From NCBI GenBank assembly GCA_021770755.1, contig JAETQI010000006.1, forward strand, positions 1 to 64,000: a DNA stretch of 64,000 nucleotides, read 5' to 3'. The position numbers and the translations under genes were made by a program. The DNA comes from Lachnospiraceae bacterium. Its GTDB lineage: Bacteria > Bacillota > Clostridia > Lachnospirales > Lachnospiraceae. Positions 2,827 to 4,750 of the stretch are shown here, one piece after another (the first letter of the stretch is position 1; each line of letters opens with the position of its first letter). The notes beneath the pieces are model-generated. The model worked only from the letters and a program-made list of their open reading frames with translations, was not told where the DNA came from and searched no databases.

Positions 2827-2856
2827 TTGACAATACCACTCAATGAGTGGTATTGT
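2827..2856 (+). promoter_or_regulatory. promoter with overlapping operator palindrome
   Basis: TTGACA at 2827 and perfect 13-bp IR ACAATACCACTCA-a-TGAGTGGTATTGT (2830-2856). Confidence 0.55.
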
Positions 2857-2957
2857 ATATAAGGGAGGAAACGAAATGTGTAAGTAGTAAATTTAATTTG
2901 GGGATAAGAAAAAGCGGTTGAAAATGCCATTGTCCCTATCGATATGGAGGTCACTAT

Positions 2958-3578
2958 ATGATAAGCAGGACTAAAAAACTCTGTCAGATATGTGGTACTG
3001 CTTTTTTTGGAGGCGGGGATTACCATTATTGTCCAGACTGCGCAAAACTCAGAAAGTCTGACACAGTGGTTAGGATACGGATCTGTCAGGATTGTGGTAT
3101 TGAGTTTTTTGGCGGTCCCAGAGCTAAACGTTGTCCGAATTGCGCATATGCGGCACGCAAAGAAGCCCAAAGGCAGTACAAAAGAAACGGAACAATGCGA
3201 CCGATTGGCAGTATTGACAAATGTGTAGTTTGTGGCAAAGAATATACCGTAGTTTCAGGACGACAAAAATATTGCTCGGATGAATGCCAACGTGTTGGTG
3301 TTCTGGAATGGCAGCGTGCCCACAAAAAAGGATATCACCATATCTCTGGACAGGATATAAAAAGAATGCAACGTCGTCGCCAGACACAAAAAATTTGCCT
3401 ATATTGCCTTATGCCTTTTACAAGTAATACATCGACAAATCTATGTTCCGATTACTGTCGTACAGAGCAGAAAAAACTGCAGCAGTGCATGTCGGATATC
3501 AGGAGAGGATATAATCGGGACTTAAAAAAATATGAAGAAAAAAGAGAAAAGTACAGGGAGGATTGTAAAAATGAATGA
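2958..3578 (+). CDS. multi zinc-ribbon protein (206 aa)
   Basis: Four CxxC...CxxxC-type knuckles: CQICG...CPDCA, CQDCG...CPNCA, CVVCG...CSDEC, CLYC...CSDYC. Confidence 0.7.
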   Translation: MISRTKKLCQICGTAFFGGGDYHYCPDCAKLRKSDTVVRIRICQDCGIEFFGGPRAKRCPNCAYAARKEAQRQYKRNGTMRPIGSIDKCVVCGKEYTVVSGRQKYCSDECQRVGVLEWQRAHKKGYHHISGQDIKRMQRRRQTQKICLYCLMPFTSNTSTNLCSDYCRTEQKKLQQCMSDIRRGYNRDLKKYEEKREKYREDCKNE

Positions 3579-3897
3579 CAAGTTATTCGCAAAATTATGG
3601 AATGATGCCCTTGTCCAGCCCCAAAAAGATATGTATATAGCAGAGTATGGTTATCCGGATTGGTTCGACGATATTAGTTCGGACATGGAGAAAGTGTTTA
3701 ATACATTAGGGAATATCCATGACATTGCGCACATGAGTGTTAAAGATCTGATATCAGTATCCGGTCTTACACAGTCGGATTTTGCCATAAAATTCTGCAT
3801 CCCGTTACGTACAATTGAAAACTGGGCAACCCAAAAGCGCCAATGCGCTGATTATATTCGGCTTTCGATCGCCAGGCAGCTCGGCCTGATTAATTAA
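3571..3897 (+). CDS. helix-turn-helix DNA-binding protein
   Basis: SVKDLISVSGLTQSDFAIKFCIPLRTIENWATQKRQCADYIRLSIARQLGL; overlaps the upstream ORF end. Confidence 0.65.
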   Translation: MNDKLFAKLWNDALVQPQKDMYIAEYGYPDWFDDISSDMEKVFNTLGNIHDIAHMSVKDLISVSGLTQSDFAIKFCIPLRTIENWATQKRQCADYIRLSIARQLGLIN

Positions 3898-3913
3898 TTT
3901 ATGGAGGGATTTT

Positions 3914-4750
3914 ATGAACAAAATAGATTTTGCACTTATTATATCTGCTCGGTTCTGTAACCCCAATGGCGATCCCCTTAACTTAAACCGCCCGAGACAA
4001 GATTATGACGGATATGGCTATATCACAGACGTATGCCTGAAACATAAGATTCGCAACCGTTTCCTAGATAACGGGGAAAACGTTCTGATTGTTGAAGACT
4101 CGCGCGTTACTGATGGACTTTTTTCTGTGAACGCGCGTGTAAAAGCACACGATTCATTAAACGATTATGTGAAAAGAAAAGATCCTGATGGCTTTAGAAA
4201 CGAAGCGTGCCGTACATGGCTGGATGTGCGGACTTTCGGGCAAGTCTTCGCATTTAAGGCATCTGATAAAGACGACAAACATATAGGAGTTTCAATCCCT
4301 GTACGTGGTCCGGTAAGCATCGGGGAGGCAAGAAGCCTGGATGTAATTGATATTATTGACTTAGGAATAACAAAATCAACTAATTTGGACGACGCAGGCG
4401 GTCGAAAAAAGGACAGCACCACAATGGGATGCAAATATGTAGTAGCTCACGGCGTCTATGTTGCATATGGCTCCATTTTCCCGCAACTTGCAGATCTGAC
4501 AGGTTTTTCAAGCGCAGATGCGCAAATCCTAAAAAACTCCATGGCTACAATTTTTGAAAACGATGCGTCTTCATCCCGGCCGAGCGGAAGCATGGGAAGT
4601 CAATTGTTTTGGTGGGAACACGATTGTTCTAATGGTCGTAAAAATTCGCTATACGTCCATAGATCATTACATATTAAAGCCATCGAAGATTTTCCGTTTT
4701 ATACTTGTGAGCCAGAACACATTCCAGGTATTGAACTTTCTGTGTTATAG
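3914..4750 (+). CDS. Cas7/Csd2-family protein, orphan (type I-C-like)
   Basis: NPNGDPLNLNRPRQDYDGYGYITDVCLKHKIRNRF; DSTTMGCKYVVAHGVYVAYGSI; MATIFENDASSSRPSGSMGSQLFWWEHD; 278 aa, full-length for the family. Confidence 0.85.
   Translation: MNKIDFALIISARFCNPNGDPLNLNRPRQDYDGYGYITDVCLKHKIRNRFLDNGENVLIVEDSRVTDGLFSVNARVKAHDSLNDYVKRKDPDGFRNEACRTWLDVRTFGQVFAFKASDKDDKHIGVSIPVRGPVSIGEARSLDVIDIIDLGITKSTNLDDAGGRKKDSTTMGCKYVVAHGVYVAYGSIFPQLADLTGFSSADAQILKNSMATIFENDASSSRPSGSMGSQLFWWEHDCSNGRKNSLYVHRSLHIKAIEDFPFYTCEPEHIPGIELSVL

What the first reader, a model, noticed from the sequence alone, without database searches (positions are those of the whole stretch)
2827..4750. Orphan full-length Csd2/Cas7 in a zinc-ribbon/HTH operon with no other cas genes
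The 278-aa ORF at 3914 carries strong Csd2 motifs (NPNGDP...RPR.DYDGYGYITDVCLK.KIRNR, FENDASSSRPSGSM). No Cas5, Cas8, Cas3, Cas1/2 or repeat array is visible in 64 kb. It is tightly linked to a four-knuckle zinc-ribbon protein and an HTH protein behind one promoter overlapped by a perfect 13-bp palindrome. A lone Cas7 could be co-opted for RNA binding, act as an anti-CRISPR-like decoy, or complement a distant array.
Basis: partly seen in the sequence, partly recalled or inferred. Interest (0 to 1): 0.8.

Follow-up and report, generated by a model that had tools for sequence, protein, structure and literature searches.

The report
Conjugative element's lone Cas7, likely anti-CRISPR
A mobile DNA element in a gut bacterium carries a single CRISPR building-block protein with no CRISPR system around it, and because this same element is a target of the bacterium's own complete CRISPR system, the protein is probably a counterfeit part that sabotages it.

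Summary
ORF 3914-4750 is a full-length type I-C Cas7 (Csd2) under purifying selection, with no other cas gene or array in 64 kb, behind a zinc-ribbon gene and an HTH gene. The same genome has a complete I-C locus with its own cas7 (49% identical), so this copy is neither a relic nor a missing subunit. It belongs to a supported, cas-free Cas7 clade found on prophages and an integrative conjugative element (ICE); the HTH gene is directly upstream in four loci. Remnants of cotJC show that the window's first 13.4 kb is one end of an ICE whose other end is on contig C68. Four spacers of the host's I-C array match that ICE, all with a TTC PAM and intact seed, which fits an ICE protected by an inhibitor. 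Best explanation: a Cas-derived anti-CRISPR, a counterfeit backbone subunit that poisons I-C Cascade, under an Aca-like HTH repressor. Mobile, CRISPR-free status is shown; inhibition and mechanism are inferred. Precedent exists for Cas5, Cas8 and Cas3 homologues; no Cas7/I-C case was found in the held literature. A control genome shows that self-targeting alone is not unique to orphan-Cas7 hosts.

The parts
3914..4750 (+). orphan Cas7/Csd2 (I-C Cas7 family), 278 aa
   Evidence: dN/dS 0.09 against L003
3571..3897 (+). HTH protein (phrog_25567 family), 108 aa, 16 nt upstream of cas7; proposed Aca-like regulator
2958..3578 (+). four-knuckle zinc-ribbon protein, 206 aa; overlaps the HTH start
   Evidence: homologues in L003, L083, L093; fused to the HTH in L041
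4863..5231 (+). small conserved cassette protein, 122 aa (phrog_34334-like); relatives beside ZnR/HTH in L003, L093, L039
2827..2856 (+). promoter-like site overlapped by a perfect 13-bp inverted repeat (2830-2856), candidate operator
2751..2797 (.). strong stem-loop, terminator-like, between the operon and upstream genes
11770..13338 (+). large serine recombinase at the right end of ICE-1 (likely its integrase)
1..13364 (.). right-hand part of ICE-1, which holds the operon; the left-hand part is G000:C68:57.68-77.48 kb; sequence between the two contig ends is not seen
13365..13489 (+). middle fragment of cotJC, between ICE-1 and a second integrated element
13490..44324 (.). second integrated element (serine recombinase 19447-20976, TubZ 21122-22102, MobA/MobL 23548-24387, T4CP 24783-26519, DUF932, YqaJ)
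44325..44398 (+). 3' fragment of cotJC (right chromosomal junction)

Best explanation
The ORF is a Cas7 subunit captured from a Clostridia type I-C CRISPR system and kept by mobile elements (an ICE here, prophages elsewhere) as an anti-CRISPR. Expressed from a promoter that its partner HTH protein probably represses, it would be built into the multi-copy Cas7 backbone of the host's I-C Cascade on crRNA, or compete with host Cas7 for crRNA, Cas5 and Cas8. Clade-specific changes would make the resulting complex non-productive, so the ICE survives in a host whose array targets it. Shown: identity, predicted fold, selection, separate clade, absence of cas genes, mobile location, recurrent HTH linkage, and PAM-correct matches of the host's apparently intact I-C system to the same ICE. 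Inferred: inhibition, incorporation as a defective subunit, and autorepression.
For: Complete host I-C locus and 46-repeat array on C54. Four spacers match contig C68 with 0, 0, 1 and 2 mismatches (positions 15; 33 and 36), each with 5'-TTC. C68 and the window are two ends of the same insertion: intact cotJC of a same-genus genome aligns in three pieces to C68, window 13365-13489 and window 44325-44398, with shared junction GCAGA. The orphan clade (32 rows, 99/94 support) excludes 22 canonical I-C Cas7 that have other cas genes beside them. Orphans are seen in prophages next to lysis genes (L006, L010-L012, L099). HTH+Cas7 in four loci. dN/dS 0.09. Fixed clade-specific substitutions on an intact Cas7c fold. 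Precedent: Cas5-like AcrIB3 replaces Cas5 in Cascade (review PMC13131331). Self-targeting is used in the field as a sign of CRISPR inactivation (PMC7913775).
Against: No inhibition data. Another ICE-1 gene, or a gene in the unseen gap, could be the inhibitor, or the I-C system could be silent. Self-targeting is not unique to orphan-Cas7 genomes: a control genome with canonical I-C also has four spacers matching its own prophage, one with TTC and three with TTT. Two orphan hosts (G241 and the L003 MAG) have no detectable Cas8c, which fits a mobile gene but gives no direct link to I-C there. The operator is not conserved in L003 or L006. The conserved core looks intact, so a positive role cannot be excluded.
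Confidence: 0.6

Rival explanations
1. The orphan Cas7 is an RNA-binding protein co-opted by phages and ICEs for their own use (for example binding an element RNA or fighting other elements) and does not inhibit host CRISPR; the ICE survives because of another anti-CRISPR or an inactive I-C system.
For: The fold and the conserved NPNGDP/RPR core are intact. Two hosts lack Cas8c. The ZnR-HTH cassette exists without Cas7. Self-targeting also occurs in a genome where no orphan Cas7 was found.
Against: The clade stays close to I-C Cas7 (about 50% identity) under strong constraint and occupies accessory slots where anti-defence genes often lie. In G000 all four protospacers keep a functional PAM and seed.
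Confidence: 0.2
2. The element uses Cas7 to hijack or redirect the host I-C machinery, for instance by forming hybrid Cascades or protecting element RNAs, as an inter-element weapon and not as an inhibitor.
For: Cas7 is the crRNA-coating subunit; mobile elements are known to recruit CRISPR parts (PMC11656645). A repeat-like unit lies beside the orphan Cas7 in one prophage lineage.
Against: No spacer or array accompanies the orphan genes. The host already makes Cas7.
Confidence: 0.1
3. It is a decaying remnant of a former I-C locus.
For: Homology to I-C Cas7.
Against: Intact ORF, dN/dS 0.09, a diversified cas-free clade, recurrent linkage to an HTH gene on mobile DNA, and a complete I-C locus elsewhere.
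Confidence: 0.02

Closest known systems
Cas7/Csd2 of type I-C Cascade (TIGR02589; PDB 7kha, 8dex, 8g9s)
   Same: Sequence family above curated cut-off; predicted fold matches with TM about 0.75.
   Different: No cas neighbours or array; separate clade with fixed substitutions (for example canonical A15 to C, N189 to F/Y, D/E224 to S, loss of the residue after E228); carried by an ICE or prophages.
Cas-derived anti-CRISPRs AcrIB3 (Cas5-like), AcrIB4 (Cas8b-like), AcrVIA2 (Cas3-like), Katz et al. 2024 as reviewed in PMC13131331
   Same: A lone Cas homologue on a mobile element in a host with a CRISPR system; AcrIB3 is 38% identical to Cas5 and enters Cascade as a defective subunit.
   Different: Here Cas7 of type I-C, in Clostridia, with an HTH partner. 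Activity untested. The primary paper is not held here, so whether it lists orphan cas7 genes is unknown.
AcrIF25 and AcrIE10 (Cas7-interface inhibitors)
   Same: Both act on Cas7-Cas7 contacts (PMC13131331).
   Different: Small inhibitors, not described as full-length Cas7 homologues.
Racr RNA anti-CRISPRs (PMC10651486)
   Same: Mimicry of a Cascade component; a repeat-like unit lies beside the orphan Cas7 in prophages L010-L012.
   Different: RNA, not protein; no such unit in the window's operon.
Aca regulators of acr operons
   Same: An HTH gene immediately beside the candidate acr gene and a palindrome on the promoter.
   Different: HTH family phrog_25567 has no known function; autoregulation and kinship to known Aca families untested.

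Membership tests
Cas7/Csd2 protein family | Score above the curated Csd2 cut-off and Cas7c fold | tested here: met
   250.9 vs 182.25 bits; AF2 model pLDDT 84.8, TM 0.72-0.77 to I-C Cas7
[quoted passage not shown]
   None in the 64-kb window; no cas neighbours in orphan loci L003, L006, L010-L012
Cas-derived anti-CRISPR (AcrIB3-like) | Homologous to a Cas subunit, without its cas operon | tested here: met
Cas-derived anti-CRISPR (AcrIB3-like) | Encoded on a mobile element exposed to the matching CRISPR type | tested here: met
   ICE-1 holds four I-C protospacers with TTC
Cas-derived anti-CRISPR (AcrIB3-like) | Structural change from the true subunit that makes the complex defective | tested here: inconclusive
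   Clade-specific substitutions found; their effect is unknown
Cas-derived anti-CRISPR (AcrIB3-like) | Inhibits CRISPR interference | not testable with these tools
   Needs a plasmid or phage interference assay
Aca-type regulator (HTH gene) | Small HTH protein encoded beside the acr gene | tested here: met
   HTH precedes cas7 in window, L003, L006, L012; all-helical model, best Foldseek partners are XRE-type HTH domains (probabilities up to 1.00 but E-values above 0.2)
Aca-type regulator (HTH gene) | Represses its own promoter through an inverted repeat | not testable with these tools
   Perfect 13-bp inverted repeat on the window promoter; not seen in L003 or L006
Racr (RNA anti-CRISPR) | Solitary CRISPR-repeat-like unit on a mobile element | tested here: inconclusive
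   Absent from the window operon; present about 145-150 nt from orphan cas7 in L010-L012, Rfam CRISPR-DR9 20.5 bits, below gathering

The most novel reading that the evidence does not exclude
A large family of counterfeit Cascade backbone subunits: dozens of mobile-element Cas7 proteins that share one origin from Clostridia I-C Cas7, are regulated by a dedicated HTH, and inhibit type I-C CRISPR by replacing the backbone subunit itself, in some prophages together with a repeat-mimic RNA as a protein-plus-RNA decoy of Cascade.
Probability: 0.35. Interest if true: 0.85.

Novelty: new variant of a known kind. Interest (0 to 1): 0.72.

Why it matters
Type I-C is a common CRISPR subtype in gut Clostridia. 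A widespread, constrained family of lone Cas7 proteins on ICEs and prophages would show that the most abundant Cascade subunit can itself be turned into an inhibitor, extending Cas co-option from Cas5/Cas8/Cas3 to the crRNA-coating backbone. It offers a ready system (host array, PAM-correct protospacers and candidate inhibitor in one genome) in which this can be tested directly, and a possible dominant-negative control for I-C tools.

Tried and rejected
Relic of an I-C locus: rejected (intact, dN/dS 0.09, separate clade). Missing subunit of a distant locus: rejected (host I-C has its own cas7). Zn-ribbon+HTH+Cas7 as an obligate three-gene system: rejected (ZnR-HTH without Cas7 in L093 and L083; Cas7-HTH without ZnR in L006 and L012). 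Spacer match to the window or solitary repeat in the operon: none. Cas7 hits in GenBank phage records (L044-L046) were I-C loci, not orphans. IMG/VR hits L013-L015 also canonical. P0008 as query found nothing in viral contigs. BFVD fold search: no viral Cas7 model. Operator conservation across loci: not found. Self-targeting as a unique mark of orphan-Cas7 genomes: rejected by the control G323. Known I-C Acr sequences were not searched for on ICE-1. The primary paper on Cas-derived Acrs is not held.

Full report
Observation. The 278-aa ORF at 3914-4750 is a genuine type I-C Cas7 (Csd2): Pfam Cas_Cas7 1.3e-61, NCBIfam TIGR02589 at 250.9 bits against a cut-off of 182, PADLOC Cas7c 4e-75. No other I-C cas gene and no repeat array is present in the window. 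The upstream genes are as described: a four-knuckle zinc-ribbon protein (2958-3578) and a small HTH protein (3571-3897), with cas7 16 nt after the HTH stop. The promoter-like site at 2827-2856 is overlapped by a perfect 13-bp inverted repeat with a 1-nt centre, and a strong terminator-like hairpin at 2751-2797 lies between the operon and the upstream gene.

The genome also has a complete I-C system. Contig C54 carries cas3, cas5, cas8, cas7, cas4 and cas1 (all open in L008), a cas2-like stretch that I read by eye from the DNA, and an array of 46 repeats. Its Cas7 is 49% identical to the window's. The orphan is therefore neither the missing subunit of a broken locus nor the only Cas7 in the cell.

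A separate clade. Among the nearest homologues, a tree puts the window protein in a large group of 90%-identity clusters apart from canonical I-C Cas7. In a careful tree with context-checked members, 32 rows, including the orphans from the window, L003, L006, L010, L011 and L012, form a clade (99/94) that excludes all 22 canonical Clostridia I-C Cas7 in the tree. The canonical loci have cas8 and mostly cas4 next to cas7; the orphan loci have no cas neighbour. L099 is a possible further orphan on a long branch, with unsure placement (a single orphan clade including it is not rejected, p-AU 0.43). The protein is under strong purifying selection (dN/dS 0.09 between the window and L003). AlphaFold2 gives a confident Cas7 fold (pLDDT 84.8) matching I-C Cas7 structures at TM about 0.75, with fixed clade-specific substitutions whose effect is unknown.

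Neighbourhood. HTH followed directly by Cas7 recurs in the window, L003 (81% Cas7 identity, uncultured Roseburia MAG), L006 (about 55%, beside prophage endolysin and holin-like genes, with chromosomal genes on the other side) and L012 (47%, prophage, between integrase and lysis genes). In L010 the HTH match is split between two frames. The HTH family is phrog_25567. The cassette of small protein, zinc ribbon and HTH also occurs in prophages without Cas7 (L093, L083; fused ZnR-HTH in L041; HTH near the lysis genes of Streptococcus phages Javan242 and Javan273). The cassette thus looks like a regulatory module with exchangeable cargo in accessory slots, with Cas7 as one cargo.

The mobile element. 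The first 44 kb of the window is integrated mobile DNA: two large serine recombinases, MobA/MobL, a T4SS coupling protein, TubZ and others. Contig C68 ends in a conjugative element (ParA, T4CP, TraG/PrgI-type ATPase, M23 hydrolase) that begins inside cotJC. The intact cotJC of a same-genus genome (L084) aligns in three pieces: the 5' part on C68, a 125-bp middle part at window 13365-13489 directly after the serine recombinase, and the 3' part at window 44325-44398; the first junction shares GCAGA. The simplest reading is two insertions in one gene. ICE-1 runs from C68:57.68 kb to the contig end, then an unseen stretch, then window 1-13.36 kb with the orphan Cas7 and the recombinase. A second element lies at 13.49-44.32 kb.

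Self-targeting. Of 45 spacers, four match the C68 part of ICE-1: spacers 5 and 10 exactly, spacer 3 with one mismatch (position 15) and spacer 17 with two (positions 33 and 36). All four protospacers are preceded by TTC, the PAM reported for type I-C (for example PMC8406640, abstract). The remaining spacers have no such matches. The four spacers lie in the half of the array away from cas2, which would be the older half if the leader is beside cas2 (inference). Self-targeting has been used in the field as a sign of CRISPR inactivation (PMC7913775). Control: in a genome with canonical I-C for which the family search listed only its canonical Cas7 (G323), four spacers also match its own prophage, but three of those have TTT in place of TTC, one of these also has a seed mismatch, and one has TTC. 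Self-targeting is therefore not unique to orphan-Cas7 genomes; what stands out here is that none of the four ICE protospacers carries an escape change in PAM or seed.

Mechanism. The best-supported reading is a Cas-derived anti-CRISPR. AcrIB3, a Cas5 homologue with 38% identity, enters type I-B Cascade in place of Cas5 and makes it defective; AcrIB4 and AcrVIA2 are Cas8b- and Cas3-like (review PMC13131331; the primary paper was not available). A Cas7 homologue is a strong candidate for the same trick because Cas7 is the multi-copy backbone of Cascade (established knowledge of type I systems). The HTH and palindrome fit an Aca-like autorepressor, but this is inference. Which other gene of ICE-1 might be the inhibitor is open, since the middle of the ICE is unseen.

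Racr-like unit. In the near-identical prophages L010-L012 a solitary I-C-repeat-like unit (CGCCCGTTTCGGGCGTGGATTGAAAA) lies about 145-150 nt beyond the orphan cas7 on the opposite strand; Rfam CRISPR-DR9 matches at 20.5 bits, below its gathering score. It resembles the solitary repeat units shown to act as RNA anti-CRISPRs (PMC10651486). None was found in the window, L003 or L006 operons.

Limits. Whether the genome is an isolate or a MAG is unknown (122 contigs, 3.76% contamination); a mixed population could mimic self-targeting, although both junctions with the chromosome are present. HTH linkage rests on four loci.

Noticed in passing
L010:7289, L011:1134, L012:11008 (- strand): Solitary type I-C CRISPR-repeat-like unit CGCCCGTTTCGGGCGTGGATTGAAAA beside the orphan cas7 in three near-identical prophages: a candidate RNA anti-CRISPR (Racr).
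   Followed up: partly
G000 contig C54 array (L008:2252-5285) and contig C68 (L078:637, 4490, 9838, 11600): The host's own I-C spacers match a resident ICE with TTC PAM and intact seeds.
   Followed up: yes
window 13365-13489 and 44325-44398; L077:17276-17692: The spore-coat catalase gene cotJC is split into three pieces by two mobile-element insertions.
   Followed up: yes
G323:C1:298-335 kb (L103, L104): A canonical I-C genome whose array also matches its own prophage; three of four protospacers have TTT in place of TTC (escape-like), one keeps TTC. That prophage may carry another anti-CRISPR.
   Followed up: partly
L093, L083, L041, L039, L040: phrog_25567 HTH cassette (with zinc ribbon or small proteins) next to lysis genes in prophages without Cas7; the accompanying small proteins are unannotated and could be anti-defence candidates.
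   Followed up: partly
L013, L015: Contigs filed as viral that carry type I-C cas5-cas8-cas7 without cas1/cas4 found nearby.
   Followed up: no
window 16100-19418: Two adjacent large ORFs with similar N-terminal motifs (SRPRRFGKS / TRPRRFGKT), probably paralogous ATPase genes of the second mobile element.
   Followed up: no
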